In this document: piece by piece, positions 25,525-43,507 of the stretch
Layout of the letters: each line of letters starts with the position of its first letter
Position numbering within the stretch: the stretch's first letter is position 1
DNA from: Dyadobacter sp. 676
GTDB lineage: Bacteria; Bacteroidota; Bacteroidia; Cytophagales; Spirosomataceae
Length of the DNA: 64,000 bases
Assembly (NCBI RefSeq): GCF_040448675.1
Contig: NZ_CP159289.1
Location: 4,881,001 to 4,945,000 of the forward strand
Reading direction: 5' to 3'
The notes under the pieces: generated by a model
Told to the model about the DNA's origin: nothing
Seen by the model: only the letters and a program-made list of their open reading frames with translations
The model's database searches: none
Translations under genes and position numbers: made by a program

Positions 25525-25542
25525 TACATTTGTAGGACAAAT
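25525..25542 (+). promoter_or_regulatory. Bacteroidota -7 element overlapped by a FadR-type operator
   Basis: TACATTTG (25525-25532) matches the TAnnTTTG promoter element. It is overlapped by ATTTGTAGGACAAAT (25528-25542), a perfect 6-bp inverted repeat with 3-bp spacer. Its core TTGTAGGACAA fits the FadR-subfamily consensus TNGTNNNACNA exactly. No good -33 TTTG box was seen at the usual distance. Confidence 0.7.
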
Positions 25543-25608: not shown

Positions 25609-28600
25609 ATGCGTTACATTAAAAGCAAAACGATCAAAACACTGATGATTTTCGCGGGCCTGTGGTTTGCGGTTTCGGTGGTGTATGCGCAAGATCTGGT
25701 AGTTTCCGGACAGGTGAAGTCCGGGCAGGACAACCAGCCGTTGCCTTTTGTGACTGTCGTGGTAAAAGGCAGCCAGCAGGGAGTGAATACGGACGCCGAC
25801 GGGAAATTCAGGATCAACGTAGGCAAGGAGAGCATTTTGATCTTTAGTTTCGTAGGCTATCGTACGCATGAAGAACGGGTCGGAAGCAGGACCGAGCTGA
25901 ATGTGGTCCTCGAACCCGACCAGAACAACCTGAACGAAGTGGTAGTAGTGGGTTACGGGAAGCAGGAACGTGAAAATATTACCTCCTCCATCTCCAAGCT
26001 CGACAGCAAGGTTCTTGAAAATATCCCTTTTGCCAATGCGGCTTCGGCCCTTCAGGGGTCTATCGCCGGCCTGCGGGTGCAGAGCACGTCCGGTTTGCCC
26101 GGTAATGCACCCCGCATTATCCTGCGGGGAGGGACGTCGATCAACAACCCCGATGGCTCGGCGCCGCTTTTTATTATCGACGGCGTGATCCGTGCCAATA
26201 TGAATGACATCAGCTCGGAGGAAATCGAGTCGATGCAGGTGTTGAAGGATGCGGCGGCTACGGCCATTTACGGGGCCAGGGCCTCCAATGGGGTGGTGAT
26301 CATCACGACGCGATCGGGCAAGGCCGGTAAGGTGCGGGTTTCGTATCAGTACGATGCGACGATATCGAGCCTTGCCAAAGGATATGACCTGCTTTCTGCG
26401 CGGGATTGGCTTTATTTTCAGCGGATGGGCACGGTGGCTTCTTCGGTTAAGAACCCTGCCAACCTCAACAAACTGACATTGCCCAACAGCTCCGGCACAG
26501 GGAATGATCTCACCAATAATACCGCCTACACAACCCAGTATCTGACGCCCGCCAATGAGTATAAGCTCAAAGAAGGATGGGAAAGCATGCCCGATCCGGT
26601 CGATCCGAGCAAAACGCTGCTGTTCAAAGGTACCGATTACCAGGACCTTCTTTTCAGGACTGCATTATCGCAAAATCACCATGTTTCGGTGAGCGGTGGG
26701 ACGGAAAAGGCTACTTACAGCGCGGGGCTCGGCTATATGGATGCCGAGGGGATTGCCATTACCACTAAATACCGGAGGCTGAATTTTGACCTGAATGGTG
26801 ACCTCACCGTGAGCAGTAAGCTCCGGTTTTACAGCCGGCTGATGTTTTCCAGTTCGGGCAATAACCAGGGTATTTCCGACAATGCGCTGTTCGAGCGCTC
26901 CATCGGCCTGGCCCCGACGGCCAAATATGCCTACGAAGACGGGACGCTGGCGCCCGGAACCGGCCAGAGTATCGGAAACCCGGTGTATCACCTCAATAAA
27001 ATCAAGGCAAAGAACAACCGCGATAACCTGACGCTGGCCATCGGCTCGCACTGGGATATTTTACCGGGACTCTCTTTCGATCCCCAGCTGTCGTTGTTCA
27101 AGTCTACGGTAGAGGCGCGGTCGTTCCAGGAGGCATTTTATAACGGGCCGGGCTTGTATGTGGATACGCGTAACGCGACGGGCTCTTTCGATAAAACCGA
27201 GCAGTACCAGGCCGATGGAGTGCTGACCTATGCCAAAACATTGGCGGGCAAGCACAACCTGGAAGTAAAGGCAGGTATTTCTTACTTCAATCGGAACAAT
27301 AGCGGGTTGCGCGCGACCGGTAGAAAAGCGGCGTCCGATCTGGTACCAACCCTTAATGCTTCGGCTGAGCCGGTGGCAGTTGGCGGATCGGACAGCAGTC
27401 AGGTATTGATCGGCTATTTTTCGCGGATCAACTACGATTTCGACCAGAAATACCTCTTATCGCTGAGCGCACGTTACGATGGGGCCTCCAACCTGGGGCG
27501 CAATAACCAATGGGGCGTTTTTCCAGGCGTGTCTGTTGGCTGGAACCTGCATCGGGAGGAGTTCTGGAAGATGCTGCCGGAAAATCTCCTGCGCGTGAAA
27601 TTGCGGGCAAGTTACGGCGTGAATGGGAACATCAGCGGCCTGGGCGACTTCACCGCCCAGGGGAATTACAGCGTTGGCAATCAGTATTCGACCAATGCCG
27701 CGGTCCTCAATACAACCATCTCCAATGCGGACCTGAAATGGGAACGTTCGAAGACATTTGACGTCGGGGCCGACGTCGGTTTGTTCGGAAACAGGGTCAG
27801 TTTGCTTTTTGACTACTACCGCAGGGTGACCGATAACCTGCTGACCTCGCTGAGGCTTCCCATGTCGACCGGTTTTTCGAGCGTACTTACCAACCTGGGA
27901 AGCCTGGAAAATAAAGGGGTAGAGCTCGAATTGAGCGCGCGCGTGCTTCCGTCCAGCAGCGCGGTCAACTGGAATGTCTCCTTCAATGCGGCGCAGACCA
28001 GGCACAAGATTCTCAGCCTGCCTTACAACGGCATTGAAAACAACCGTATCGGCGGGGTGTACGTCTGGAACCCGGCTACAAATGGCTATGCCTGGATGGG
28101 CGGCCTGCAAGAGGGCGGCCGGATCGGCGACATGTATACTTATAAACAATTGAGTATCTACGCCACCGACGAGGAAGCTGCCGCCGGCCCGGTTGACAAC
28201 CTGGTAACGGGAGCGAACAAGACCAAGTATGGCGGAGATGTGAACTGGCTGGATGCGGATCAGAACAAGGTGATCGATGAAAAAGACAGGGTGTATGTTG
28301 GTAATCCCTATCCGGTCTGGACGGGTGGTTTTACCAACTCATTGGAATACAAAGGGATCAGCCTGCTGCTGCGGATGGATTACACGACAGGCCATACGAT
28401 CCAGAACTATCCCAGGGCGCAGATGATCGGCCAGTTTCAGGGGGAAATAGGGCTGCTTTCGGATGTGAAAAGGTCGTGGCAGACACCCGGCGACATTACC
28501 GACATTCCCAGGTTTTACTGGGCCGATCAGCAGGTGCAAAACAACCTGTACCGTGGCGGCATCGGCGGAGGGAACTCGATGTACTATGAAAAGGGCGATT

Positions 28601-28812
28601 ATCTGGCTGTGCGGGAGCTTACCCTGGCATACAGCATACCCAAATCCATCTTAAACAGGGCCAAAATCAACGGTTTGCGGCTTAATGTCACGGCGAACAA
28701 CCTGCATTACTTCACCGGCTACAAGGGGTTGAACCCCGAGGAAGGCGGAGTGGACCGTGGAAGGTACCCGATACCCCGCTCCATTATCCTGGGCTTGAAT
28801 ATTTCATTGTAA
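25609..28812 (+). CDS. SusC-type TonB-dependent outer-membrane transporter
   Basis: A 1067-residue SusC/RagA receptor. It has a signal peptide (IFAGLWFAVSVVYAQ), a carboxypeptidase-like domain (VSGQVKSGQDNQPLPFVTVV), a plug with LNEVVVVGYGKQERENITSS, and the family motif MQVLKDAAATAIYGARASNG at about 205-225. A C-terminal beta-barrel ends in a hydrophobic strand (RSIILGLNISL). It imports a nutrient across the outer membrane with the SusD partner encoded 7 bp downstream. It is the first gene of the catabolic cluster, directly under the FadR-type operator. The substrate is not given by sequence; the downstream genes suggest a sialic- or amino-sugar-acid-containing compound. Confidence 0.95.
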   Translation: MRYIKSKTIKTLMIFAGLWFAVSVVYAQDLVVSGQVKSGQDNQPLPFVTVVVKGSQQGVNTDADGKFRINVGKESILIFSFVGYRTHEERVGSRTELNVVLEPDQNNLNEVVVVGYGKQERENITSSISKLDSKVLENIPFANAASALQGSIAGLRVQSTSGLPGNAPRIILRGGTSINNPDGSAPLFIIDGVIRANMNDISSEEIESMQVLKDAAATAIYGARASNGVVIITTRSGKAGKVRVSYQYDATISSLAKGYDLLSARDWLYFQRMGTVASSVKNPANLNKLTLPNSSGTGNDLTNNTAYTTQYLTPANEYKLKEGWESMPDPVDPSKTLLFKGTDYQDLLFRTALSQNHHVSVSGGTEKATYSAGLGYMDAEGIAITTKYRRLNFDLNGDLTVSSKLRFYSRLMFSSSGNNQGISDNALFERSIGLAPTAKYAYEDGTLAPGTGQSIGNPVYHLNKIKAKNNRDNLTLAIGSHWDILPGLSFDPQLSLFKSTVEARSFQEAFYNGPGLYVDTRNATGSFDKTEQYQADGVLTYAKTLAGKHNLEVKAGISYFNRNNSGLRATGRKAASDLVPTLNASAEPVAVGGSDSSQVLIGYFSRINYDFDQKYLLSLSARYDGASNLGRNNQWGVFPGVSVGWNLHREEFWKMLPENLLRVKLRASYGVNGNISGLGDFTAQGNYSVGNQYSTNAAVLNTTISNADLKWERSKTFDVGADVGLFGNRVSLLFDYYRRVTDNLLTSLRLPMSTGFSSVLTNLGSLENKGVELELSARVLPSSSAVNWNVSFNAAQTRHKILSLPYNGIENNRIGGVYVWNPATNGYAWMGGLQEGGRIGDMYTYKQLSIYATDEEAAAGPVDNLVTGANKTKYGGDVNWLDADQNKVIDEKDRVYVGNPYPVWTGGFTNSLEYKGISLLLRMDYTTGHTIQNYPRAQMIGQFQGEIGLLSDVKRSWQTPGDITDIPRFYWADQQVQNNLYRGGIGGGNSMYYEKGDYLAVRELTLAYSIPKSILNRAKINGLRLNVTANNLHYFTGYKGLNPEEGGVDRGRYPIPRSIILGLNISL

Positions 28813-28819
28813 AACCATC

Positions 28820-30313
28820 ATGACGATTCAGATGAAGACAAAATATAAAATGCTGACTTGCCTGGCATTGTTATGTGCCGGGGTGAACCAGTCCTGTACC
28901 GATAACCTCGATGTTGCGCCTGTGAGCGTGATCACGGAGGCCTCGTACTGGAAATCGGAAAACGACGCGAACGGCGCTTTGAACGGCCTGTATGTGCTTT
29001 TGCGAAGACAGGCATCGGAGAACCTGTACCTGTGGGGCGAAGGCCGCAGCGAGGTGATGGGCTTGGGCGTGCAGGGTTCCGGCGGCCGCGAGCGGTATCA
29101 CGACAACAGCCTGGATGTGACCACGGCCGGGCCCAACTGGCTGGGGATGTATTATATTGTCCACCAGGCCAACCTGATCCTGAAATATGTGCCGCAAATC
29201 ACCTTTTCCTCCGAGGCGACTAAAAACAATATCCTTGCCCAGGCGTACACGATGCGGGCATTCACGTATTTCACCATGGCCAAAACCTGGGGCGACTTGC
29301 CACTGGTAACCGAGCCGACCGAGGGTTACGACCCGGCCTCCATCCAGAAGCCGCGCACACCGGTGAAAGAGATTTTCTCTTTTATCAAGGAGGATATCAC
29401 AAAGGCTGCCCAGCTTTTTAGTGAATCCAATGCCCTGGCGCAGGGGCGGCAGTTCTGGTCGAAACCTGCCTTGAATGCCCTGAAAGCGGATGTGTTTCTC
29501 TGGACCGCCAAGAGGCTTGGCGGGGGCGAGGCGGATTTCAATACCGCGTTGGCAGCCATTACCGAGGCTGAGAAAGCAGATATAAGCCTCCTGCCCAAAT
29601 TCGAAGATGTTTTTGATTATACTAACAAAGGCAACAAGGAAATTCTGATGGCAGTCCGTTTCAAGGATATCGAAGTGACCGACAACCATTATAGCCTCAT
29701 GTATTTCCCGCAGGCGTTTTTACCGTCCGATCTGGACGCCGCGACCAAGGCGGCGATCGGTCTGCCGGCGGGCCAGAATTACTGGGCACCGTCCGCGACG
29801 ATCCGAAGCCAGTTTACGGAAGACGACAGCCGCAAGAATGCCTCTTTTGTCGAAGTATACACCTCGGCGTCGGGCACGCAAAAATTTGTCGGGTCGCTGG
29901 CCGTGAAGTTCAATGGTTTTGTCAACTCCGGCATCCGGTTGTTCCTGGACGATGTGATCCTGTACCGCTACGCCGATCTGCTGCTGATGAAGGCGGAAGC
30001 AAAAAACGCACTGGGGCAGGATCCCTCCGCTGAAATCAATAAAGTGCGGGAACGGGCCTATGGCGTTGCCTACAAACAACATGTATTCGTAAGCGGTAGC
30101 AAGGATGCCAACGACGAAGCCATTCTCCGGGAGCGCCTTTTCGAACTGGTTTTTGAAGGAAAAAGATGGTGGGACCTGGTGCGTTTTGGCAAGGCATTCG
30201 AAAAAATACCCTCATTGAAAGACCGCGCCGGTAAAGATTATCTGCTGCTTTTCCCGATTTCAGAAGCTACATTAAGCCTCGAACCGCAGGTCAAGCAAAA
30301 CCCCGGCTATTAA
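28820..30313 (+). CDS. SusD/RagB-type nutrient-binding lipoprotein
   Basis: A 497-residue surface lipoprotein. The lipobox cysteine follows ALLCAGVNQSC, and ATG 28832 is another possible start. The all-helical SusD fold is shown by the N-terminal DNLDVAPVSVITEASYWKSE and by AYTMRAFTYFTMAKTWGDLP, a TPR-like helix pair. The C-terminal RERLFELVFEGKRWWDLVRF is the family signature. It caps the SusC channel and captures ligand. The pair is 7 bp apart and belongs together. Confidence 0.95.
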   Translation: MTIQMKTKYKMLTCLALLCAGVNQSCTDNLDVAPVSVITEASYWKSENDANGALNGLYVLLRRQASENLYLWGEGRSEVMGLGVQGSGGRERYHDNSLDVTTAGPNWLGMYYIVHQANLILKYVPQITFSSEATKNNILAQAYTMRAFTYFTMAKTWGDLPLVTEPTEGYDPASIQKPRTPVKEIFSFIKEDITKAAQLFSESNALAQGRQFWSKPALNALKADVFLWTAKRLGGGEADFNTALAAITEAEKADISLLPKFEDVFDYTNKGNKEILMAVRFKDIEVTDNHYSLMYFPQAFLPSDLDAATKAAIGLPAGQNYWAPSATIRSQFTEDDSRKNASFVEVYTSASGTQKFVGSLAVKFNGFVNSGIRLFLDDVILYRYADLLLMKAEAKNALGQDPSAEINKVRERAYGVAYKQHVFVSGSKDANDEAILRERLFELVFEGKRWWDLVRFGKAFEKIPSLKDRAGKDYLLLFPISEATLSLEPQVKQNPGY

Positions 30314-30345
30314 TCAGATCATTGCTGACTTAAACTCTTAACTTC

Positions 30346-31464
30346 ATGAAACAATTAATTCTTACTGCTCTTATCTTCCTGGTTGTTGCGTCGGGCATTT
30401 GCACATGCGCCCAAAAGCCGTCGGGCGGTGAGCCGCAGCTTGCATTGCAGCTCAACCCGGGTCCGGATAATCCAAGAAACAGTGAAGGAGATTTTATCAC
30501 ACTCAAAAACGGTGATATCCTTTTTATATACAGCCGTTACACCGGCAGCTCCACCAGCGACCATGCGCCTGCATACCTGGCCGGAAGACTGTCCCGCGAC
30601 GGTGGTAAGACATGGACTTCTACCGACAGGCTGATCGTGGAGCGGGAAGGCGATATGAATGTGATGTCCGTATCGCTGCTCCGGTTGAAGAGTGGGAAAA
30701 TTGCCCTGTTTTACTTGAAAAAGAATTCGGAGACGGACTGTATTCCACAGATGAGGACTTCATCCGACGAAGGTAAGACGTGGAGTGCGCCGGTGCCCTG
30801 CATTACCGACAAGAAAGGATATTTCGTATTGAACAACAGCCGGGTGATCCAGTTGTCCGATGGCCGGCTGATGATGGCTGTCGCACTGCATCGCGCTATC
30901 GACGGCAAATGGCAGAACCAGGCCACACTGTACAGCTATTATTCCGATGACCAGGGCGCGAGCTGGAAGTCGTCTTCGGCAGTACCTAATAACTCACAGA
31001 TTATTACGCAGGAACCGGGGCTGATCGAATTGAAGGACGGCCGGATTATGATGTTCATTCGCGCGAGCGGTGGTGTACAGCAGTTGTCTTATTCATCCGA
31101 CAAAGGAGCCAGCTGGTCCCATATAGCGCCTAGCAACATTGCCTCGCCGCTGTCACCGGCTTCTATCAAAAGAATTCCCGGCACGTCCGATCTGCTGCTG
31201 GTGTGGAATAACAACGACGGCAGCCAGCCCCAGACGAAGGACAAGCGCACGCCGCTTACCGTGGCTATTTCCAAAGACGATGGTAAAACCTGGATCAACA
31301 CCCGGAACATCGAAACCGATCCGGATGGCTGGTACTGCTATATCGCGATCCATTTTACCAAAAATGACGTGCTGCTGGGCTATTGTGCCGGAAGCCAGGC
31401 GAAAAAGACACATTTATCGGTGACGAACGTGAAGCGTTTCCCGCAAAAATGGTTGTACCAGTAA
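30346..31464 (+). CDS. Exo-alpha-sialidase-like BNR-repeat protein
   Basis: A 372-residue six-bladed propeller protein with an N-terminal signal peptide (LIFLVVASGICTCA). It may be a lipoprotein, since Cys follows. Five Asp-box motifs are visible: SRDGGKTW, SSDEGKTW, SDDQGASW, SSDKGASW and SKDDGKTW, the mark of sialidases. Sialidases release sialic acids or related sugar acids from glycans. Active-site arginines could not be matched with confidence, so another glycosidase or a binding role remains possible. It sits third in the cluster, 32 bp after the SusD gene. Confidence 0.8.
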   Translation: MKQLILTALIFLVVASGICTCAQKPSGGEPQLALQLNPGPDNPRNSEGDFITLKNGDILFIYSRYTGSSTSDHAPAYLAGRLSRDGGKTWTSTDRLIVEREGDMNVMSVSLLRLKSGKIALFYLKKNSETDCIPQMRTSSDEGKTWSAPVPCITDKKGYFVLNNSRVIQLSDGRLMMAVALHRAIDGKWQNQATLYSYYSDDQGASWKSSSAVPNNSQIITQEPGLIELKDGRIMMFIRASGGVQQLSYSSDKGASWSHIAPSNIASPLSPASIKRIPGTSDLLLVWNNNDGSQPQTKDKRTPLTVAISKDDGKTWINTRNIETDPDGWYCYIAIHFTKNDVLLGYCAGSQAKKTHLSVTNVKRFPQKWLYQ

Positions 31465-31472
31465 GCGGCTGT

Positions 31473-32279
31473 ATGAGAGAACATCATCATCGTTCACGGA
31501 GGTTTTTCCTCCTGCGTGCGCTGGCTGGCGCGTTTGCGGGCCTGTTGCCCGCCCGGGCGACCGCGCATGTACGTACGCGCAAGAAAGTAGCCTCGGCAGA
31601 AGAGGATCTGAAAAAGATCGCTGCTTTGCTGAACGGCAAAACGCGCGGTGTCTGGGTTTTTACCGGGGACAGCATTACCCAGGGAGCCAAGCACACCCAC
31701 GGGCATCGGAGTTATCCTGAAATTTTCGCGGAGCGCCTACGCTGGGAACTGGCGCGGGCAGGCGACATCGTCGTCAATACCGGCATGAGCGGGCACACGA
31801 CCCGGCAGGTTCTGAATGATATGGAATGGCGTGTGGGGCAATTCAGGCCCGGAGTGGTATCGGTCATGCTGGGAACCAACGATTGCGCGCGCAACCAGGT
31901 AACCCTGGCGGATTTTGAAGCGAACCTGGTATTGATCGTAGCGCAGGTCCGTGCGATGAATGCCGTGCCGATCCTCCACACGCCCAACCCGATCATCGCC
32001 GGAAAGGCCCCGGAACGCGCGTCGCTCCCTGAGTACGTGGCGGTGATCCGAAAAGTTTCCCTGCGGGAAAATACAATCCTAGTGGATCATGACGCCGAAT
32101 GGAATGCCGGGATAGCAAACCGGTCGGCCGAGGCAATTCATCGTGAATGGCTGAACGATCCGCTGCATCCCAATCAGACCGGGCATCAGCAGTTGGCGGC
32201 AGCCCTTTTTAAAGCACTGAACATTTTTGACCCAGCTCAACCTACCTGCGGAGCAGCCTATTATGAAGGAGCACATTGA
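31473..32279 (+). CDS. Tat-exported SGNH/GDSL hydrolase
   Basis: A 268-residue esterase starting at ATG 31473; a longer frame begins inside the sialidase gene and adds no domain. The start RSRRFFLLRALAGAFAGLL holds a twin-arginine (SRRxFLx) export signal. The SGNH blocks are intact: GDSITQG (S67), GTNDC and the D-x-x-H end in NDPLHPNQTGH. Enzymes of this fold remove O-acetyl groups from sugars. In this cluster it would deacetylate the substrate outside the cytoplasm. It lies 8 bp downstream of the sialidase gene. Confidence 0.85.
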   Translation: MREHHHRSRRFFLLRALAGAFAGLLPARATAHVRTRKKVASAEEDLKKIAALLNGKTRGVWVFTGDSITQGAKHTHGHRSYPEIFAERLRWELARAGDIVVNTGMSGHTTRQVLNDMEWRVGQFRPGVVSVMLGTNDCARNQVTLADFEANLVLIVAQVRAMNAVPILHTPNPIIAGKAPERASLPEYVAVIRKVSLRENTILVDHDAEWNAGIANRSAEAIHREWLNDPLHPNQTGHQQLAAALFKALNIFDPAQPTCGAAYYEGAH

Positions 32280-33168: not shown

Positions 33169-33188
33169 AACAGGAAAACATACGATTT

Positions 33189-35984: not shown

Positions 35985-36030
35985 CCAAGCACAGGTCTCG
36001 ATTTTACCAGCAACATCCCAAACCCGGTTC

Positions 36031-37296
36031 ATGAACATTGCAAAACCTTTCCCGGAAGACAAGCCGGCTTCGTATGCCTGGCTGGTGGTTGGTATGCTGT
36101 GCCTGGTAGGTTGCCTCAACTACCTGGACAGGATGATGATTACCACCATGCGCAGCTCCATCGTGGCGGCGATCCCGATGTCGGAGACGCAGTTTGGGCT
36201 GCTGACCTCCGTTTTTCTCTGGGTGTATGGGCTCCTTAGCCCCGTGGCGGGCTTCCTGGCCGATCGTTTCAGCCGCAGCAGAGTGATCATTGTCAGCTTG
36301 CTGGTGTGGTCTCTTGTGACCTGGCTTACCTCGCAGGCGGTCACCTTCGAGCAACTACTGGCGACCAGGGCATTGATGGGCATCAGCGAGGCGTGCTACA
36401 TTCCCGCTGCACTGGCCCTGATCATGGACTATCACCCTGAAAAGACCAAATCACTGGCTACGGGTATCCATATGGGCGGCGTGATGTTCGGGCAAAGCCT
36501 GGGTTTTGTCGGCGGATGGCTCGCTGAAAACCATTCCTGGAATTTCGCATTCAAGGTCTTCGGTGGTTTCGGCATCGTTTACGCGATGTTGCTGGCACTT
36601 ACGCTGCGTGATCCTCAAACAGCCATTCAAAAATCGGAAAGCAGCGGGGATAGGCCCACGGGTTTTGCGGGAGCGATCGGCGGGCTGCTCCGAACGCGGT
36701 CCTACCTGTTTGCAATCCTGTACTGGGGATTGATCAGCATCGTCGGATGGGTGGTGGTAGCATGGTTACCCACGTATTTTAAGGAGCATTTTGCCTTGTC
36801 GCAGAGTATGGCCGGGGTGTATTCGACGGGGTATTTTCACACCGCATCACTGACCGGCGTATTGCTGGGTGGTTTTTTGGCCGACCGGTGGAGCAGACGC
36901 AATCCCCGCGCGCGGGTGCTGGTACCTCTGTATGGTTTGCTGATCGGCGCGCCTGCCATCTTTCTGGCCGGTAATACGGCAGTATTGTCTGTGGCCATTG
37001 GCTGTTTCATGTTGTATGCCCTCACACGCACATTTACGGATGCGAACATGATGCCTATCCTGAGCATGATCGTCGATGCGCGCTACCGGGCAACGGCATA
37101 TGGCATTCTCAATATGTTCAGTTGCATCGTCGGCGGGCTGGGAATATATGCGGGAGGGATGCTTCGCGACGCGGATGTGCCGCTTTCTGCCATGTTCAAG
37201 GTTGCGGCAGGTATGATGCTGGTATGCGTGGTGGTTTTAAGATATATCAGGACAGAGCCTGTCGAGAATCAGGTATTAAATCAAATTGAAAAATGA
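36031..37296 (+). CDS. MFS transporter
   Basis: A 421-residue major facilitator with about 12 membrane segments. The loop 2-3 motif is GFLADRFSRSRVI, and helix 1 begins YAWLVVGMLCLVGCLNYLDR, the style of hexuronate and organic-anion transporters (ACS-like family), with the charged residue pattern LDRMMITTM. It likely imports the released sugar acid from the periplasm. It is followed by RraA with overlapping stop and start. Confidence 0.9.
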   Translation: MNIAKPFPEDKPASYAWLVVGMLCLVGCLNYLDRMMITTMRSSIVAAIPMSETQFGLLTSVFLWVYGLLSPVAGFLADRFSRSRVIIVSLLVWSLVTWLTSQAVTFEQLLATRALMGISEACYIPAALALIMDYHPEKTKSLATGIHMGGVMFGQSLGFVGGWLAENHSWNFAFKVFGGFGIVYAMLLALTLRDPQTAIQKSESSGDRPTGFAGAIGGLLRTRSYLFAILYWGLISIVGWVVVAWLPTYFKEHFALSQSMAGVYSTGYFHTASLTGVLLGGFLADRWSRRNPRARVLVPLYGLLIGAPAIFLAGNTAVLSVAIGCFMLYALTRTFTDANMMPILSMIVDARYRATAYGILNMFSCIVGGLGIYAGGMLRDADVPLSAMFKVAAGMMLVCVVVLRYIRTEPVENQVLNQIEK

Positions 37297-37937
37297 ATAT
37301 TGAAGAACTAAAAGACAAACTATACGTGGCCGTGCTTGCGGACGTACTCGATCAGCTGGGGTTTACCCATCAGGCTACCCGAACCCCTTTTTTCGCCTAT
37401 ACCGGTATCAACAAGTTGATGGGCCGCTGCAAGACGACGCTCTGGGCGGATATGTACCACCAGGATCCTAATCCTTATGAGCTCGAATTGAAGGCAGTCG
37501 ATTCATGCCAGCCAGGCGATGTGCTGATCTGTGCGGCCGGCGGTTCGAACCGGTCGGGTATCTGGGGGGAGCTGCTTTCTACCGCCGCAAGTAATGCCGG
37601 TTGTGTGGGCGTAGTGGTGCACGGTTCGGTGCGCGATATCGACAAAATGACGGCTATGGGATTTCCTGTATTTGCGACTGGCAAAAACCCCTATGACAGC
37701 CAGAATCGCCAGAAAGTAGTTGACCTGGATGTGGTCGTAGAGATCGACGGGGTGAAATTTGCGCCCGGCGACCTGGTTATGGCCGAACGGGACGGGATTG
37801 TGGTAATTCCGCAGCAGGTAGAAGCACAGGTGCTGGCGGCGGCGCTCGAAAAGGTTTCCGCCGAGAACGTCACGCGCGACGCGATCAGGAATGGAATGAA
37901 GGCCATGGAGGCATATCAGAAATTTGGTGTATTATGA
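37293..37937 (+). CDS. RraA-like / HMG aldolase family protein
   Basis: A 214-residue protein of the RraA/4-hydroxy-4-methyl-2-oxoglutarate aldolase family. Typical blocks are AVLADVLDQLG, the central GIWGELLSTAASNAGCVGVV and the metal- and substrate-binding GSVRDIDKM (the R-D pair). Catalytic members cleave substituted 2-keto acids to pyruvate; others regulate RNase E. The catabolic setting and the complete R-D motif favour the aldolase role. ATG overlaps the MFS stop by 4 bases. Confidence 0.85.
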   Translation: MNIEELKDKLYVAVLADVLDQLGFTHQATRTPFFAYTGINKLMGRCKTTLWADMYHQDPNPYELELKAVDSCQPGDVLICAAGGSNRSGIWGELLSTAASNAGCVGVVVHGSVRDIDKMTAMGFPVFATGKNPYDSQNRQKVVDLDVVVEIDGVKFAPGDLVMAERDGIVVIPQQVEAQVLAAALEKVSAENVTRDAIRNGMKAMEAYQKFGVL

Positions 37938-38314
37938 AAACAAAGCACGTTGTTACCGGGCCTGTCCCGCAGAGCCATTTACCTTTTTCGCCGGGAATCG
38001 TGTCGGGAGAATATCTGTTTGTATCCGGACAGGCGAGCGTCGACGATCAGGGCCAGATCGTTAACGATACATTTGAGGGCGAATGCCGCCGGTCGTTCGA
38101 TAACCTGAAAAGGATTGTCGAAGCCGCAGGAGCGACACTTGACGATGCGGTACAGGTAAGAAATTACGTCGGCCGGCAGCAGGATCTGGCCAGTTTCAAT
38201 GCCATTTACCGGGAGTATTTCCGGGAGCCGTTTCCGGCACGTACCACGCTGATAGGATGTCTCGGGGACCTGCTCAAATTCGAAGTCGACGCAGTCATTC
38301 ATTTAGGCAAGTAA
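37934..38314 (+). CDS. RidA family enamine/imine deaminase
   Basis: A 126-residue YjgF/YER057c/UK114 protein. It shows the family pattern FSPGIVSGEYLFVSGQ, RNYVGRQQDLASFNAIYREY and the conserved Arg and Glu in PFPARTTLIG and FEVDAVIHL. RidA hydrolyses reactive 2-aminoacrylate or related enamines to keto acids. Its presence with a fold-II PLP enzyme suggests an amino group is removed by elimination in this pathway. It overlaps RraA by 4 bases. Confidence 0.9.
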   Translation: MKTKHVVTGPVPQSHLPFSPGIVSGEYLFVSGQASVDDQGQIVNDTFEGECRRSFDNLKRIVEAAGATLDDAVQVRNYVGRQQDLASFNAIYREYFREPFPARTTLIGCLGDLLKFEVDAVIHLGK

Positions 38315-38321
38315 TCCGGTT

Positions 38322-39836
38322 ATGACTGAACCAGCGCCTCAGAAACCTGATTGTCAACATGCACCCCGACGGGTGGGATTACTGGGTATTTATCATGAGA
38401 CCAACACGTTTATCGAATCGGCCACGACGTTGGCCGATTTCCGGGACGGATACTGGCTCGAGTCAGGCCGGATCAGAGACGAATACCAGGGTGCAAACCA
38501 TGAGATCAGCGGACTGATCGAGGTGATAGACAGCGCTCCGGATATGGAACTGGTGCCTGTATTTTACGCTATGGCTACGCCGGGAGGGCTGATCACCAGG
38601 GAATGCTACGAACAATTGCTGGACCGTATGATGCGGCTACTGGACGAGGCAGGCCCGTTGGATGCCTGCCTGGTCGCGCCGCATGGCGCCGGTGTGGCCG
38701 AGGGATACCCGGATATGGACGGGCATTGGTTGTCGTTGCTGAGACAGAAACTGGGAGCCAAGGTGCCGGTTATCGGTACACTGGACCCTCATGCCAATGT
38801 AAGCCAGGCGATGGTCGATGCGACTGATGGCCTGATCGCCTATGCTACCAACCCGCACGTCGATCAGAAACGGACCGGCATGGCGGCCGCCCGGCTGCTG
38901 GTCAGGACGCTGCGTGGAGAGATTTCGCCCATACAGCTGTTGGTTAAACCGCCCGTCGCCATTAGCATCGAGCAGCAGTTTACTTCCCAACAGCCCTGTC
39001 TGGGGCTTTATGCATTTGCGCAGGAGTTGAAACAGCAGTCCGGGCTGCTCTCGGTGAGCGTATTGCTTGGCTTCCCTTATGCGGATGTGTATGAAATGGG
39101 GTCGGGGTTCATTGTGATCGCGGATCGTAACCAGTCACCGGTTGCGGCCGGCCAGGCAAAGGAAGCCGCACGTAAGCTTTTCGATTTTTTACTGGACCAT
39201 AAACAGGCATTCAACGGGAGAAAATCGGACATAGAAACTGTACTGAAAGGTTTCAAAGATCACCCGCAACCGGCGCTGCTGCTGGATATGGGCGATAATA
39301 TCGGGGGCGGGGCACCGGGCGACGGTACGTTGATCCTCGAACATCTTGAAGCAGGCGGATTCTCAGGCTTTTTTATCTGCTTGCATGATCCCGGAAGCGT
39401 CGCTCTATGCCGGGAAGCGGTTTCCGGGGCGGTTATCTCCCTCTCTTTGGGAGGAAAAAATGGTTTTCAAACCGACGTTGAGGTAATTGAATTATATGAC
39501 GGTCACTTTACGGAGGATGCCCCGCGCCACGGCGGGTTTGTCCGTTATGATATGGGCCCTACGGCGGTGGTCCGTACGCTGAGCGGCAATACGGTGATGC
39601 TTACAACGAAGCGTACTCCACCGTACAGCCTGCGGCAGCTTACGGCTTTCGGTTTGGATCCGCATGGTTTCCGGGGGATTGTCGCCAAGGGAGTTAATGC
39701 GCCTATTGCAGCATACGGGGAGGTTTGCCCATCGATTATCCAGGTCGATACGCCCGGAGTGACCCAAGCCGATATGACCCTTTTTGAATACAAAAACCGA
39801 AAGGTGCCCCTGTTTCCTTTTGAAGAACATGTATGA
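38322..39836 (+). CDS. M81 family metallopeptidase (MlrC-like)
   Basis: A 504-residue protein with the MlrC N-terminal domain and C-terminal domain. The motifs VGLLGIYHETNTFIESATT, PHGAGVAEGYPDMDGHW and TLDPHANVS give the zinc-binding Asp and His candidates. MlrC opens linearised microcystin peptides, but most M81 proteins have unknown amide substrates and often sit beside RidA genes, as here. It probably hydrolyses an amide or lactam in the substrate. The gap to RidA is 7 bp. Confidence 0.85.
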   Translation: MTEPAPQKPDCQHAPRRVGLLGIYHETNTFIESATTLADFRDGYWLESGRIRDEYQGANHEISGLIEVIDSAPDMELVPVFYAMATPGGLITRECYEQLLDRMMRLLDEAGPLDACLVAPHGAGVAEGYPDMDGHWLSLLRQKLGAKVPVIGTLDPHANVSQAMVDATDGLIAYATNPHVDQKRTGMAAARLLVRTLRGEISPIQLLVKPPVAISIEQQFTSQQPCLGLYAFAQELKQQSGLLSVSVLLGFPYADVYEMGSGFIVIADRNQSPVAAGQAKEAARKLFDFLLDHKQAFNGRKSDIETVLKGFKDHPQPALLLDMGDNIGGGAPGDGTLILEHLEAGGFSGFFICLHDPGSVALCREAVSGAVISLSLGGKNGFQTDVEVIELYDGHFTEDAPRHGGFVRYDMGPTAVVRTLSGNTVMLTTKRTPPYSLRQLTAFGLDPHGFRGIVAKGVNAPIAAYGEVCPSIIQVDTPGVTQADMTLFEYKNRKVPLFPFEEHV

Positions 39837-39842
39837 CGGTTT

Positions 39843-40673
39843 ATGAACTTGGAAAGCACCACGCTAAAACTATTGGACCTGCCTTTCTATACGGAGGGGC
39901 CCTGTGTCGACGAGATAGGGAATTTGTTCTTTACCACATTGAGCGGCGGTCAGCTGCTGCGGATGCGGCGGGGTGAAGCACCTGTAAAATGGGCCGAAGC
40001 CCGGTGCCCGAATGGTCAGCTTATCACTGCCGGGGGCATTCATTTGGTGTGCGACAGTGCAGAGGGGGCTATCGTACAATTCGATCGCACTGGCAGTCGT
40101 ACCGGAGAGCTGGTTAATGGGCAATGCGCCGGGTATACTGTACGTTGCCCGAACGACCTGATCGAAGACCGCTATGGTAATGTGTTTTTTACCGATTCGG
40201 TACGCGAAAGCGGGAGGGTTTTCAAGGTAGGGAAAGATGGGGCGCAGCAATGCATTGCCGCCGGCCTGGACTATCCGAATGGACTTGCGCTGTCGCCGGA
40301 CCAATCGCTGCTCTACGTTGCGGAAAGTTATCGGAACAGGATACTGTCCATTTCGCCAAGCGAGGAAACGGCCCGGCCGGTGTCTGTTTGGGCCACCCTG
40401 CCCGCGCATCAGTCCGGCAGGCCGGTGGATAATCTACCCGATGGACTGGCGACCGATGCGGAGGGGCGTGTTTGGGCGGCCCATTATGGTATGGGTGCTA
40501 TTCAGGTATTTTCGCCTGAGGGATCGTTACTCGCCACCCTGGACACTGGGTTACCCCTTACCAGTAACCTGTGTTTTGTGTCCGACCAGCCGCACCGGAA
40601 ATCGGTTTTGGTCACCGGTGGCTACGCGGAGCCCGGGCCGGGCGCTGTGCTGATGATGACTGTCGATATGTGA
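39843..40673 (+). CDS. SMP-30/gluconolactonase family protein
   Basis: A 276-residue six-bladed propeller of the senescence marker protein-30/lactonase family. The metal-binding residues are in place: Glu in YTEGPCVDE, Asn in RCPNDLIED and Asp in LPDGLATD. Members hydrolyse sugar lactones formed when aldoses are oxidised. It would follow a dehydrogenase step by one of the SDR or AKR enzymes nearby. The start is 6 bp after the M81 stop. Confidence 0.85.
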   Translation: MNLESTTLKLLDLPFYTEGPCVDEIGNLFFTTLSGGQLLRMRRGEAPVKWAEARCPNGQLITAGGIHLVCDSAEGAIVQFDRTGSRTGELVNGQCAGYTVRCPNDLIEDRYGNVFFTDSVRESGRVFKVGKDGAQQCIAAGLDYPNGLALSPDQSLLYVAESYRNRILSISPSEETARPVSVWATLPAHQSGRPVDNLPDGLATDAEGRVWAAHYGMGAIQVFSPEGSLLATLDTGLPLTSNLCFVSDQPHRKSVLVTGGYAEPGPGAVLMMTVDM

Positions 40674-40674
40674 T

Positions 40675-41742
40675 ATGAAAGCTTTTATGAAATATTTCTC
40701 AATTATAGTGATGATGATGGTAGTTGAAGCGGCTGTTGCACAAACCGCGTTGAAATGGAGTGCATTGCCCGATTTGCCTGACGAGCGCGGGTTTGCGGGC
40801 ATGTATGCAGGCGTAAGCCACGGCGCGCTGCTCTGCCTGGGCGGCGCAAATTTCCCTGATGGCTACCCCTGGGACGGAGGCGTCAAGCAATGGTATGACG
40901 GGATTTTTTTACTCCAACAAGGCGGTAGTTGGAAAAAGCTGCCGCAAAAAATGGAAGCCGCCGCGGGCTATGGCGTTTCGGTTTCCTACCAGGAACGGGT
41001 AATTCTGATTGGCGGCAGCAATGCACACGAACATTTGACTCGGGTGATCGGCTATGAATGGGATGGCACCGCACTGGTGCAGCATCAATACCCTTCGCTG
41101 CCTTTTCCCCTGGCCAATATGTCCGGTGCGGTGCTTGACGACCTGCTGATCGTGGTGGGTGGAAATGTTTCGCCCACAGGTCCGGGATTGAATAAATGCC
41201 TGGTGCTGGATTTGAAAAAAGTCGGAACGGGCTGGGCTGAAATGGAACCCTGGCCCGGTCCCGGGCGCATTTTCCCCGTTTGCGCGACATTCGACGGCGA
41301 CTTTTATATGTTCAGCGGTGAGGCGACCGCGGTTAATTCCAAAGGAAATTCATACAGGCTGATTCATCAGGACGGCTACCGGCTAAGCATTAAGCACTCC
41401 GGCGGACAGCGGAGTGCGCATTGGGAAAAGCTTGCGGCAATGCCAAGGGGGATGTCCGCCGGTGGTTCGGTGCTCCCGGTGTTAAAGGGCGACCGGTTTT
41501 TGTTCTGGGGCGGGGTCGATGCCGTGACGGCCCAGCACAAGACGCCATCCTCGCACCCGGGGATTACCAACGACCTGCTTTACTATTTCCCCCATACCGA
41601 CTCCTGGGAGTTTGCGGGCCGGCAGCAGCGTGTCCCGGCCCGGGTGACACTGCCGGTGGTGCATTGGCAAAACCGGTGGTTTTACATTAGCGGGGAGATC
41701 AAACCTGGTATCAGAACGCCTGCTATTATTGGAGTTTATTAA
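40675..41742 (+). CDS. Cyclically permuted mutarotase / NanM-like kelch protein
   Basis: A 355-residue secreted kelch propeller with a signal peptide (FSIIVMMMVVEAAVAQ). The N-terminal signature LPDERGFAGMYAGVSHGALL and GGANFPDGYPWDGG is that of the cyclically permuted mutarotase family related to N-acetylneuraminate epimerase. Repeated Gly-Gly turns (LGGANF, IGGSN, VVGGNV, WGGVD) mark the blades. It would equilibrate the anomers of a released sialic acid or sugar acid in the periplasm. It is the best pointer in the cluster to a sialic-acid-like substrate. Confidence 0.85.
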   Translation: MKAFMKYFSIIVMMMVVEAAVAQTALKWSALPDLPDERGFAGMYAGVSHGALLCLGGANFPDGYPWDGGVKQWYDGIFLLQQGGSWKKLPQKMEAAAGYGVSVSYQERVILIGGSNAHEHLTRVIGYEWDGTALVQHQYPSLPFPLANMSGAVLDDLLIVVGGNVSPTGPGLNKCLVLDLKKVGTGWAEMEPWPGPGRIFPVCATFDGDFYMFSGEATAVNSKGNSYRLIHQDGYRLSIKHSGGQRSAHWEKLAAMPRGMSAGGSVLPVLKGDRFLFWGGVDAVTAQHKTPSSHPGITNDLLYYFPHTDSWEFAGRQQRVPARVTLPVVHWQNRWFYISGEIKPGIRTPAIIGVY

Positions 41743-41772
41743 AATACATTGACTTTCGGCAATAGCTGATCT

Positions 41773-42708
41773 ATGAAAACAATCGCATTTAAAGGATACC
41801 GCATTTCTCAACTTACATTGGGGACCGTTCAGCTGGGTATGCCTTACGGAATATCCAATTCACAAGGTATGCCCAACGACCGGGAAGCGCTGGATATGCT
41901 GCGTATGGCAGCGGATGCAGGGGTTACCACTTTCGATACGGCACGGCAATATGGTGCCTCCGAGGCACTATTAGGCCGTTTTTTGGCGGGCCATACCGGG
42001 GTTGATCTCAATATGGTTTCCAAGTTTAAAATCTCCCCGCAGGATGCCGGCGCTTTGGAGCGGGCCTGGAAATCGGTAGAGGGCAGCGTCAGAGCTTCCA
42101 TTGAATGCCTGGGTATCAGCAGGCTGCCCGTCTGTCTGCTGCACAAGGGAGAAGAGCCGACGGATGCGGTGGCCGGGATATTACCGGTGATCATTTCGCG
42201 GCTCAGGGAGCAGGGGTTGATCGATATAGGCGGCGTGTCGGTGTACGAGCCGGCGGATGTCGCTTTTTGCCTGTCGGAGCCTCTCGTCGAGGCGGTGCAG
42301 GTGCCGGTGAATATCTTCGATCAGCGACTGGTCGTTTCGGGCGCATTGCAGCGTCTTGCACAGGCGCAAAAACTCGTTTTCGCCCGCAGTGTGTTTCTGC
42401 AAGGATTGTTTTTTATGGACCCCGGGCAGATGAGCGGCAACCTTGTTCCAGCTATACCCTTTTTGAAGCAGCTTCACACATTTGCGAAAGAATACCCGGC
42501 CGATATCGCCGGCCTGGCCTTTTCTTACGTCAGGGACCTGCCGGGGATCGATAGCATTGTGGTGGGAGCGGCTACTTCTGCCCAACTGGCAGAAAATGTG
42601 AAGTTGCTCAGTGCCCCCGCGATCCCGGCGTCGCTTCGGGACGAATTTGTTAAAGTATTTACAGCTGTCCCCGACGAAATCATTACGCCGGGAAGATGGA
42701 AAATTTAA
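41773..42708 (+). CDS. Aldo/keto reductase
   Basis: A 311-residue (beta/alpha)8 reductase. The catalytic tetrad is visible: Asp in FDTARQ, Tyr in QYGASEALLG, Lys in VSKFKIS and His in LLHKGEEP. The C-terminal IDSIVVGAAT is the cofactor-binding end. It reduces a sugar aldehyde or ketone with NADPH, or runs in reverse. The same type is frequent in sugar-acid pathways. It lies 30 bp after the mutarotase. Confidence 0.9.
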   Translation: MKTIAFKGYRISQLTLGTVQLGMPYGISNSQGMPNDREALDMLRMAADAGVTTFDTARQYGASEALLGRFLAGHTGVDLNMVSKFKISPQDAGALERAWKSVEGSVRASIECLGISRLPVCLLHKGEEPTDAVAGILPVIISRLREQGLIDIGGVSVYEPADVAFCLSEPLVEAVQVPVNIFDQRLVVSGALQRLAQAQKLVFARSVFLQGLFFMDPGQMSGNLVPAIPFLKQLHTFAKEYPADIAGLAFSYVRDLPGIDSIVVGAATSAQLAENVKLLSAPAIPASLRDEFVKVFTAVPDEIITPGRWKI

Positions 42709-42715
42709 TCAGATC

Positions 42716-43507
42716 ATGAACCAGTTATTCAGTTTGACCGGCAAAGTTGCGATCGTCACCGGAGGGGCCGGCTTTTTTGGTACACCCATATCCATAGCCC
42801 TGGCGGAAGCAGGCGCTCAGGTAGTTATTGCCTCGCGTAACGTGAGCATCTGCGAAGATTTAGCATCCGGGTTGTCGGCCCGGGGCCTCCTGGCCACGGC
42901 TATGCCATTAGACCTGGAAGAAGAAACTTCCATCCGCGCACTAGTGGAAACTGTGATGGACATGTTCGGACGTATAGATATCCTCGTTAATAATGCTGTT
43001 TCGAGGCAGGGTTTTCAGAATCTGGAAGAAATAGAGGTTACCGGCTGGGAAGCGGCGCAGCGCGTCAACGCTACCGGGCTCGTGCTCATGACCCGGGCGG
43101 TCATCGAACCCATGAAGGTGGCAGGTGGGGGAAGCATTATCAATATCGGATCGATCCAGGGAGCGGTAGGGCCGCATTTTCCGGTTTATGGACAAACAGG
43201 TATGACAAGTCCGGTCAACTATACGTACGACAAATGGGGAATGGTAGGTTTCACCAAATGGCTGGCCAATTTTTATGGCCGGTACAACATCCGGGCCAAT
43301 TGTATTAGTCCGGGTGGATACGGGCCCGGGGTCGCGCAGCTGGAAGGGAAGGAGGAATTCGTTGAAAACTACCAACGACTCACCCCGTTGGGACGATTCG
43401 CCGATGACGCGGATATCAAAGGGCCAGTTGTATTTATGGCCTCGGACGCCTCCGCATTCATCACCGGGCATAACCTGCTGGTCGATGGCGGCTGGACGAG
43501 TTGGTAG
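42716..43507 (+). CDS. SDR family oxidoreductase
   Basis: A 263-residue short-chain dehydrogenase from ATG 42716; a longer open frame begins inside the AKR gene but adds no domain. The motifs TGGAGFFGTPIS, NNAVSRQ, the Ser in NIGSIQG and the catalytic pattern YTYDK are present. The middle insert between Ser and Tyr is rather long (about 20 residues), as in sugar or gluconate dehydrogenases. It is the last gene of the cluster, ending about 280 bp before a hairpin. Confidence 0.85.
   Translation: MNQLFSLTGKVAIVTGGAGFFGTPISIALAEAGAQVVIASRNVSICEDLASGLSARGLLATAMPLDLEEETSIRALVETVMDMFGRIDILVNNAVSRQGFQNLEEIEVTGWEAAQRVNATGLVLMTRAVIEPMKVAGGGSIINIGSIQGAVGPHFPVYGQTGMTSPVNYTYDKWGMVGFTKWLANFYGRYNIRANCISPGGYGPGVAQLEGKEEFVENYQRLTPLGRFADDADIKGPVVFMASDASAFITGHNLLVDGGWTSW

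What the first reader, a model, noticed from the sequence alone, without database searches (positions are those of the whole stretch)
25609..43507. Sixteen-gene cluster that looks like an undescribed sugar-acid/amino-acid catabolic system
The combination is unusual: SusCD, sialidase-fold protein, Tat-exported SGNH esterase, M14-type deacylase, PLP lyase, DapA-like and RraA-like aldolases, RidA, M81 amidase-like protein, SMP-30 lactonase, NanM-like mutarotase, AKR and two SDRs with an MFS importer. No nanA-nanE-nanK-type amino-sugar phosphate genes are present, so it is not the standard sialic-acid route. An acylated, lactone-forming amino sugar acid or a nonulosonic acid derivative would use most of these activities. 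Tight spacing (many genes overlap by 1-8 bases) indicates one transcription unit.
Basis: partly seen in the sequence, partly recalled or inferred. Interest (0 to 1): 0.8.

Follow-up and report, generated by a model that had tools for sequence, protein, structure and literature searches.

The report
Possible oxidative sialic-acid breakdown operon
A bacterium of the Dyadobacter kind carries a 16-gene operon that appears to break sialic-acid-type sugars down by oxidation instead of by the usual phosphate-adding steps, which, if confirmed, would be a new way for bacteria to eat these sugars.

Summary
Four other Dyadobacter loci have the same block. The front end is sialic-acid type: the SusD is first of 79 NanU-model stretches in the genome, the "DapA" keeps the N-acetylneuraminate lyase pocket, a NanM is present, and the palindrome shape recurs at 6 of 12 canonical-type sialidase/NAL loci examined. 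In 24 fully covered Bacteroidota loci SDR1, AspA-like deacylase, PLP lyase and RidA are present 24/24, M81 and SMP-30 lactonase 23/24. Best reading: a phosphate-free route, nonulosonic acid -> pyruvate + ManNAc -> lactone -> N-acetylmannosaminate -> mannosaminate -> 2-keto-3-deoxygluconate -> pyruvate + glyceraldehyde. Mannosaminate is L-configured at C2, fitting the AspA and ThrC-like families; the published GlcNAc1A (Ong) route uses D-type enzymes. Against it: the genome also holds canonical genes elsewhere (sialidase, NAL, AGE, NagB), so the substrate may be a modified sialic acid; M81, AKR and SDR2 have no step; nothing is assayed. My open-access searches listed no description of such a route.

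The parts
24711..25445 (-). GntR/FCD regulator, NanR-like, divergent from the operon
   Evidence: Pfam GntR + FCD; best NCBIfam NanR 71 bits, below cut-off 260; 52% identical to the GntR of the canonical sialic locus L087
25528..25542 (.). operator-like palindrome ATTTGT-N3-ACAAAT, 66 nt before susC
25609..28812 (+). SusC-type TonB-dependent outer-membrane transporter
   Evidence: TIGR04056 797 bits, above cut-off 368
28820..30313 (+). SusD lipoprotein, NanU-like
   Evidence: NanU model 334 bits, cut-off 425; first of 79 matched stretches in own genome; best PDB match 4l7t NanU, E 2.4e-83
30346..31464 (+). sialidase-superfamily BNR_2 protein of a non-RIP (PRNSEG[DS]F) subfamily
31473..32279 (+). 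SGNH/GDSL esterase with a twin-arginine-like leader (possible O-acylesterase)
   Evidence: leader read by eye
32263..33168 (+). AstE/AspA-family N-deacylase (DoeB-like); proposed N-acetylmannosaminate deacetylase
   Evidence: presumed metal and catalytic residues kept in 51-52 of 53
33189..34004 (+). SDR1, proposed ManNAc 1-dehydrogenase
   Evidence: Tyr and Lys kept 34 of 34; 24 of 24 full Bacteroidota loci
34001..35092 (+). PLP fold-type II lyase (PALP, threonine-synthase-like, not the genome's ThrC); proposed mannosaminate ammonia-lyase/dehydratase
35085..35984 (+). N-acetylneuraminate-lyase-type aldolase (DHDPS superfamily)
36031..37296 (+). MFS importer, best NCBIfam match the galactonate transporter subfamily (131 bits, cut-off 395)
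37293..37937 (+). RraA-type class II pyruvate aldolase (RD motif kept); proposed KDG aldolase
37934..38314 (+). RidA imine/enamine deaminase
   Evidence: conserved Arg 31 of 31
38322..39836 (+). M81/MlrC-type metalloprotein, step unassigned
39843..40673 (+). SMP-30/gluconolactonase-type lactonase
   Evidence: presumed metal ligands kept 26 of 26
40675..41742 (+). NanM-type sialic acid mutarotase with a signal-peptide-like N-terminus
41773..42708 (+). aldo-keto reductase, accessory, step unassigned
42716..43507 (+). SDR2 (gluconate 5-dehydrogenase/KduD-like), accessory, step unassigned
43788..43810 (.). terminator-like hairpin between the operon and the convergent MacB-type gene; flagged by the scan on the - strand only

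Best explanation
The block is one sialic-acid-responsive operon, controlled by the divergent GntR at the palindrome at 25528. Outer steps: the BNR_2 protein and the SGNH esterase trim or release the sugar acid, NanM equilibrates it, NanOU-like SusCD and the MFS import it. Cytoplasm: the NAL-type enzyme gives pyruvate and ManNAc (or its N-acyl analogue). SDR1 oxidises ManNAc to its 1-lactone, the SMP-30 protein opens the lactone to N-acetyl-D-mannosaminate, the AspA-like enzyme deacylates it, and the PALP enzyme eliminates water and ammonia, helped by RidA, to give 2-keto-3-deoxy-D-gluconate (KDG). RraA (or another aldolase) splits KDG into pyruvate and D-glyceraldehyde. No kinase, epimerase or sugar phosphate is needed. 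Shown by sequence: gene content, conservation, catalytic residues, NAL pocket, shared palindrome. Inferred: the substrate, the order of steps, every individual reaction and the GntR-operator binding. My estimates: sialic-acid-type front end about 0.85; the oxidative deacylase-lyase route as written about 0.5.
For: Front end: the SusD scores 328 bits as first of 79 NanU-model stretches in the genome (next 271, then 108), higher than the SusD of a canonical sialic operon (L098, 179 bits); best PDB match NanU, E 2.4e-83. The lyase's best NCBIfam and PDB matches are N-acetylneuraminate lyases; S47, T48, Y137, K165, T167, G189 and D191 are kept in 29 of 29 window-type rows from the loci and E192 in 28 of 29. 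Regulation: WTWTGT-N3-ACAWAW occurs 14 times in the 7.28 Mb genome (control 10): once at this promoter and twice at the canonical GntR and sialidase promoters of L087. It stands at sialidase or GntR promoters of three more Dyadobacter loci, before the susCD-sialidase-NAL-NanM operon of L098 and before a sulfatase-sialidase-NAL-NanM operon of Sphingobacterium SGG-5. The 80 related loci hold 24 sites, control 0, all in 14 of 33 Bacteroidota loci, 0 of 47 others; 15 of 24 are intergenic and within 122 nt of a called gene start. Back end: in 24 full Bacteroidota loci AspA, SDR1, PALP and RidA 24, M81 and SMP-30 23, NAL-type and NanM 21, RraA 13; catalytic residues kept. Stereochemistry (established knowledge): D-mannosaminate is L-configured at C2, matching AspA/DoeB and ThrC-like families that act on L-amino acids; the published GlcNAc1A route, D-configured, uses a D-aminoacylase relative, a putative D-amino-acid deaminase and a RidA needed for growth (passages).
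Against: No enzyme has been assayed. The same genome carries a sialidase-NAL-NanM::symporter locus, an AGE epimerase (697 bits, cut-off 600) and NagB (257, cut-off 237); of 28 cluster-bearing genomes searched 17 have AGE over the cut-off and 20 have an L087-type NAL at 200 bits or more, so the cluster does not replace the standard route. The lyase differs constantly from E. coli NAL (Gln at 50, no Tyr at 190, in 29 of 29) and stays below the NAL cut-off (176 against 281 bits). The BNR_2 protein lacks the RIP motif. M81 is nearly as constant as RidA yet has no step. RraA is absent from 11 of 24 full Bacteroidota loci. Outside Bacteroidota the AspA-PALP module lacks NAL, lactonase and NanM at my thresholds (0 of 47); a clear window-type NAL was found in 1 of 38 such genomes. 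Six of 12 canonical-type loci have no operator site, and 9 of 24 sites in the related loci lie in called ORFs. SDR1's substrate cannot be read from sequence.
Confidence: 0.5

Rival explanations
1. Same regulatory and chemical logic, but for a sialic acid the canonical route handles badly (Neu5Gc, O-acylated or other N-acylated nonulosonic acids of bacteria or invertebrates). The canonical locus L087 takes Neu5Ac; this operon takes the modified form, and AspA and M81 remove the unusual acyl groups.
For: Canonical locus, AGE and NagB in the same genome; altered lyase positions 50 and 190; non-RIP BNR_2 subfamily, up to four BNR copies per locus; SGNH esterase in 11 of 24 full Bacteroidota loci; two separate hydrolases, AspA and M81.
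Against: Seven of the eight genomes without an L087-type NAL of 200 bits or more carry the window-type lyase in the cluster (all but G254/L021), so there it may serve ordinary Neu5Ac. The SusD is NanU-like, and NanU binds Neu5Ac 4- to 5-fold better than Neu5Gc (passage).
Confidence: 0.25
2. The AspA-SDR1-PALP core is an amino-acid module (N-acyl hydroxyamino acid to keto acid, ectoine-like), unrelated to the sugar part and only co-transcribed with a sialic acid uptake operon.
For: AspA is nearest DoeB and the PALP lies in the threonine synthase/dehydratase/EutB superfamily; the module occurs without close NAL, NanM or lactonase outside Bacteroidota; an M24-family peptidase (the family of ectoine hydrolase, recalled) sits beside it in Opitutales loci (one member of that gene group scanned).
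Against: In 24 of 24 full Bacteroidota loci SDR1 and RidA accompany it, and in 23 the lactonase; EutB is not the best match of the PALP (80 bits against 176 for a threonine synthase model).
Confidence: 0.15
3. The NAL-like protein is really a KDG-type aldolase and the operon degrades an N-acyl hexosaminic or amino-uronic acid taken up as such; NanM and NanU-like proteins act on that acid.
For: The DHDPS superfamily holds both activities; positions 50 and 190 differ from NAL; RraA is missing from 11 of 24 full Bacteroidota loci, so the DHDPS member could do the last cleavage.
Against: D191 and E192, NAL sugar-chain contacts (recalled), are kept together in 28 of 29; the archaeal KDG aldolase model scores 98 bits against 176 for NAL; palindrome shared with sialidase operons.
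Confidence: 0.1

Closest known systems
Bacteroidetes-type sialic acid pathway (NanL, NanE-II/AGE, RokA, with NanOU uptake)
   Same: NanU-like SusD, NAL-type lyase, NanM, MFS; Bacteroidota host; the first cytoplasmic product would be ManNAc (passages)
   Different: no epimerase or kinase in the cluster; instead SDR, lactonase, AspA-type deacylase, PLP lyase, RidA and RraA; AGE and a second NAL sit elsewhere in the genome
Oxidative chitin (Ong) pathway of Pseudoalteromonas prydzensis ACAM 620 (PMC9537276)
   Same: works like it: a non-phosphorylated N-acetyl aldonate is deacetylated, then deaminated by a PLP enzyme to KDG, with a RidA needed for growth (passages)
   Different: different families: OngB is a D-aminoacylase-like barrel (abstract of PMC12017989) and OngC a putative D-amino acid deaminase; here AspA-type and ThrC-like enzymes; the Ong substrate comes from LPMO oxidation, not from NAL plus a dehydrogenase; Ong uses a kinase (KdgK) on KDG
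NanA-NanK-NanE route (E. coli paradigm)
   Same: NAL-type first step and NanM
   Different: no NanK or NanE in the cluster; no sugar phosphates needed in the proposed route
Ectoine/hydroxyectoine degradation (DoeB, EutB)
   Same: AspA-family deacylase closest to DoeB; PALP enzyme
   Different: DoeB 88 bits against cut-off 403, EutB 80 against 413; sugar genes and sialic-type palindrome

Membership tests
Canonical sialic acid catabolism (NanA/NanL + epimerase + kinase) | N-acetylneuraminate lyase | tested here: inconclusive
   best family match NAL, 176 bits, below cut-off 281; catalytic and pocket residues kept; activity untested
Canonical sialic acid catabolism (NanA/NanL + epimerase + kinase) | NanE or AGE epimerase and ROK/NanK kinase in the cluster | tested here: not met
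   none among the 16 genes; AGE lies at 1.28 Mb
NanOU sialic acid uptake system | SusD above the NanU model cut-off | tested here: not met
   334 bits against 425, though first of 79 stretches in the genome
NanOU sialic acid uptake system | binding of free Neu5Ac | not testable with these tools
   needs a binding assay
GH33 sialidase | RIP motif near the N-terminus besides Asp boxes | tested here: not met
   Asp-box-like repeats present; RIP replaced by PRNSEGDF
NanR-type GntR regulator | NanR model above cut-off | tested here: not met
   71 bits against 260; the regulator at L087 also stays below, 96 bits
NanR-type GntR regulator | control of sialic acid genes through a shared operator | tested here: inconclusive
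   same palindrome shape at canonical sialic promoters; binding untested
Ong oxidative GlcNAc1A pathway | OngB-type D-aminoacylase and OngC-type D-amino acid deaminase | tested here: not met
   deacylase is AstE/AspA; lyase is ThrC-like PALP; Ong sequences themselves were not at hand for a direct comparison
Ong oxidative GlcNAc1A pathway | RidA beside the deacylase and deaminase | tested here: met
   RidA in 24 of 24 full Bacteroidota loci
Threonine synthase (ThrC) | TIGR00260 above cut-off 167 | tested here: not met
   128 bits; a separate ThrC scores 286 in the same genome
RraA ribonuclease E regulator | RraA equivalog model above cut-off | tested here: not met
   81 bits against 136; aldolase RD motif (recalled) kept 25 of 25

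The most novel reading that the evidence does not exclude
A third way to catabolise sialic-type acids: oxidative, without epimerase, kinase or sugar phosphate, in which ManNAc is oxidised, delactonised, deacylated and deaminated to KDG by an L-amino-acid-type deacylase and lyase. The deacylase-lyase pair is a portable module found in Bacteroidota, Verrucomicrobiota and Planctomycetota, and its lyase family (2439 non-redundant proteins at E <= 1e-60 among the 7999 candidates scored, named only threonine synthase, PLP-dependent lyase/thiolase or PLP-dependent enzyme in the 120 rows listed) is an undescribed 2-amino-2-deoxyaldonate ammonia-lyase family.
Probability: 0.45. Interest if true: 0.78.

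Novelty: new variant of a known kind. Interest (0 to 1): 0.64.

Why it matters
A review and a global metagenome survey recognise sialic acid catabolism by the NanA/NanK/NanE or NanL/AGE/RokA genes, and the survey tracks nanE and nan-type clusters (passages of PMC10017367, and of PMC10570557). An oxidative route would be invisible to such surveys and could change estimates of who consumes sialic and nonulosonic acids outside animals. It would also give a function to a large PLP-lyase family now often annotated as threonine synthase, and would be an independent solution to the same chemistry as the oxidative chitin pathway, with enzymes of the opposite C2 handedness. The claim is directly testable with a handful of purified enzymes.

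Tried and rejected
Rejected or weakened: (1) Housekeeping threonine synthase: the genome has a separate ThrC at 286 bits. (2) Ectoine degradation: DoeB and EutB scores far below cut-off, sugar context. (3) RraA as RNase regulator: score below cut-off, RD motif kept. (4) 'Cluster replaces a missing nan pathway': AGE, NagB and a second NAL are present; ROK kinase and NagA were not searched. (5) 'Only in sialic context': at my thresholds 0 of 47 loci outside Bacteroidota have NAL, lactonase or NanM nearby; below them, NanM relatives of 30-33% occur in 4 of 47, DHDPS relatives of 23-30% in 6 and one SMP-30 relative of 28%. At E <= 1e-30 a window-lyase match occurs in 5 of 38 genomes, one of them clear (45%, 253 bits), four at 32-35% (39 of the 47 loci were given, L048 not held). 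(6) Legionaminic/pseudaminic acid as the main substrate: after lyase action C4 carries an N-acyl group, so no final retro-aldol by RraA (inference, not tested). (7) The Gfo/Idh/MocA gene of Cyclobacterium loci as a NanOx: YjhC is only the 12th listed PDB match and the best NCBIfam match is an inositol dehydrogenase model below cut-off; inconclusive.

Led nowhere: paper searches for an oxidative ManNAc, mannosaminate or sialic route (in some only 25 of 46, 20 of 23 and 12 of 69 papers were listed); promoter and terminator scans at shuffle level; the looser operator TTGTNNNACAA is uninformative, 144 sites against 120 control.

Errors and limits of mine: the SGNH query was out of frame (start 31474), so SGNH values are invalid; corrected (13 of 33 Bacteroidota loci, 11 of 24 full). 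One search kept 80 of 88 related stretches. The split into 33 Bacteroidota and 47 other loci is mine, from record titles; L017 and L020 have no phylum in the title and were placed by gene content. 'Full' means a locus longer than 20.9 kb; flanks end at 10 kb, so SusCD, AKR and SDR2 counts are lower bounds. ORFs were picked greedily by length, so some labels are wrong-strand artefacts; counts rest on tblastn identity and bit thresholds I chose. The operator pattern was written after seeing the window, Dyadobacter, L081, L020, L036 and one L087 site; the second L087 site and those in L014, L015, L030, L097-L100 and L106 were not used to define it. Related genomes (five Dyadobacter; L016-L018) are not independent. 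Of the 11 other genome-wide sites I looked only at one, which lies in the susD coding region of L086. Output was cut; its motif list was recounted.

Full report
What is there. The window lies at 4,881,001-4,945,000 of a 7.28 Mb single-contig genome; its nearest relatives among the fetched loci are Dyadobacter species. Gaps are at most 46 nt and five neighbours overlap. Divergently, 24711-25445 encodes a GntR regulator with an FCD domain. A terminator-like hairpin lies at 43788-43810, between the last gene and a convergent MacB-type gene; the scan flags it on the - strand only, and the scan as a whole is at shuffle level.

Front end: sialic-acid type. The SusD protein scores 334 bits with the NanU model; in the genome-wide search it is first of 79 matched stretches (some genes count twice), with 328 bits against 271 and 108 for the next two. 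Its best PDB match is NanU (4l7t, E 2.4e-83). As a yardstick, the SusD of a canonical sialic operon of D. endophyticus (L098) scores 179. All stay below the curated cut-off of 425. The 'DapA' has N-acetylneuraminate lyase as best match in NCBIfam (176 bits, cut-off 281) and in PDB. Aligned to E. coli NAL, S47, T48, Y137, K165, T167, G189 and D191 are kept in 29 of 29 window-type rows of the related loci, and in the window itself, and E192 in 28 of 29; position 50 is Gln and position 190 Ala or Ser throughout. A NanM-type mutarotase is present. The BNR_2 protein keeps Asp-box-like repeats but has PRNSEGDF in place of the GH33 RIP motif; among 66 BNR ORFs of the related loci 38 (in 24 loci) have the PRNSEG form and 3 a RIP.

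Regulation ties it to canonical sialic loci. The same genome has a second locus at 6.03 Mb (L087): GntR (52% identical to the window's), a sialidase with the YRIP motif, an NAL-type lyase and a NanM fused to a sodium:solute symporter. The palindrome ATTTGT-N3-ACAAAT stands 66 nt before susC in the window and in L006-L009, and 51 nt before the called susC start in Siphonobacter L081. The consensus WTWTGT-N3-ACAWAW has 14 sites in the whole genome against 10 for the backward control; three lie at the window promoter, upstream of the L087 sialidase and upstream of the L087 GntR. In other genomes I examined 11 loci of the canonical kind, chosen by their L087-type lyase: with L087, 6 of 12 have a site (9 sites in all, control 0). 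These are L097, L099 and L100 (just upstream of the sialidase start, and in L097 and L099 also upstream of GntR), L098 (upstream of susCD-sialidase-NAL-NanM) and L106 of Sphingobacterium SGG-5 (upstream of sulfatase, sialidase-like protein, NAL, NanM, MFS). L101-L105 and L107 have none. In the 80 related loci (1.37 Mb) there are 24 sites and no control site, all in 14 of 33 Bacteroidota loci, none in 47 others. Fifteen of the 24 are intergenic and within 122 nt of a called gene start; 2 lie just inside a called ORF and 7 inside coding sequence. Related genomes are not independent, and the pattern was written after seeing some of the sites.

Back end: an oxidative, deacylating, deaminating module. 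One scan for the PALP enzyme gave 80 loci, the best of 88. In the 24 Bacteroidota loci longer than 20.9 kb, my tblastn thresholds give AspA 24, SDR1 24, PALP 24, RidA 24, M81 23, SMP-30 23, NAL-type 21, NanM 21, BNR 20, SusD 17, MFS 15, SusC 13, RraA 13, SDR2 9, AKR 8, GntR 8 and SGNH 11. So a dehydrogenase, a lactonase, a deacylase, a PLP lyase and RidA travel together almost without exception, usually with a sialic-type lyase. Residues presumed catalytic from the known families (recalled) are kept: AspA His/Glu/His/Glu 51-52 of 53, PALP Lys 75 of 75, SDR1 Tyr and Lys 34 of 34, RraA Arg-Asp 25 of 25, SMP-30 Glu/Asn/Asp 26 of 26, RidA Arg 31 of 31. Outside Bacteroidota (mostly Verrucomicrobiota and Planctomycetota by record title) the AspA-PALP pair recurs with RraA or an HpcH/HpaI aldolase, a sodium:solute symporter, an M24 peptidase or M81 in various combinations (one or two members of each new gene group scanned), but without lactonase, NanM or NAL at my thresholds (0 of 47); weaker relatives exist in a few. 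A clear window-type NAL was found in 1 of 38 such genomes.

Mechanism. Nonulosonic acid -> (NAL-type) pyruvate + ManNAc -> (SDR1) lactone -> (SMP-30) N-acetyl-D-mannosaminate -> (AspA) D-mannosaminate + acetate -> (PALP, RidA) KDG + ammonia -> (RraA) pyruvate + D-glyceraldehyde. This uses seven of the sixteen genes in one line and six more (SusC, SusD, BNR, SGNH, NanM, MFS) for release and import; M81, AKR and SDR2 remain. Stereochemistry is an argument from established knowledge: mannosamine is the C2 epimer of glucosamine, so mannosaminate is an L-type amino acid at C2, and the families found here (DoeB/AspA, threonine synthase/dehydratase) act on L-amino acids. [quoted passage not shown] abstract of PMC12017989). 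The analogy is of chemistry, not of family.

What speaks against it. The genome also has an AGE epimerase over its cut-off (697 against 600 bits) and a NagB (257 against 237). Of 28 cluster-bearing Bacteroidota genomes searched (28 of the 33 loci), 17 have AGE over the cut-off and 20 have an L087-type NAL at 200 bits or more. So the operon runs beside the canonical route; a modified sialic acid as substrate is the main rival. No assay exists. In an even sample of 241 genomes of the order, six others of the same genus among them, only the own genome has the PALP at E <= 1e-60, although loci from Larkinella, Runella, Spirosoma and other Dyadobacter species carry it: a patchy, perhaps horizontal, distribution.

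Known or not. A review and a survey describe the E. coli and the Bacteroidetes routes, and the review the 2,7-anhydro entry (passages). Some lists were capped and the library is open-access only, so this is weak evidence of absence. N-acetyl-D-mannosamine dehydrogenase is named among SDR aldose dehydrogenases (one passage of PMC12133307; a Flavobacterium enzyme of this kind is recalled). The PALP family has 2439 non-redundant proteins at E <= 1e-60 among the 7999 candidates scored; the 120 rows shown carry no more specific name than threonine synthase, PLP-dependent lyase/thiolase or PLP-dependent enzyme.

Verdict.

Noticed in passing
L087:7161-12748 (own genome 6.03 Mb): Second, canonical sialic locus: GntR, sialidase with YRIP, NAL-type lyase, and NanM fused to a sodium:solute symporter.
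   Followed up: yes
L086:2303-16379 (own genome 7.05 Mb): Second NanU-like SusCD pair (53-56% to the window's) with an MFS (58-69%, read as two overlapping ORFs), a weak BNR relative and an SDR.
   Followed up: partly
L051, L052, L058, L063, L065, L069: Opitutales and other Verrucomicrobiota loci: RraA (not in L052, cut by the contig end), M24 peptidase, AspA, SDR, PALP and M81 close together, without NAL or NanM: a stripped core of unknown substrate.
   Followed up: partly
L028, L032, L034, L037, L054, L075, L084: Variants outside Bacteroidota with a sodium:solute symporter, HEAT-repeat protein and HpcH/HpaI aldolase in several combinations beside SDR, AspA and PALP.
   Followed up: partly
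L018, L019, L020, L024, L026, L027, L028, L030, L036, L048: A class III aminotransferase recurs in these loci, often at the end of the cluster; role unknown.
   Followed up: no
L093:284-2397: In the genome of locus L077 (Fuerstiella) a window-type NAL (45%) lies next to a protein with a weak PALP match.
   Followed up: no
L106:2945-9481: Sulfatase in one gene row with a sialidase-like protein, NAL, NanM and MFS, behind the same palindrome: possible use of sulfated sialic acids.
   Followed up: no
L016:2548, L017:10012, L018:6767: Operator-like palindrome inside the 5' end of the PALP gene in three related loci; coding chance or internal regulation.
   Followed up: no
window 43948-46374 (-): MacB/FtsX-type permease convergent with the operon; not part of it.
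   Followed up: no
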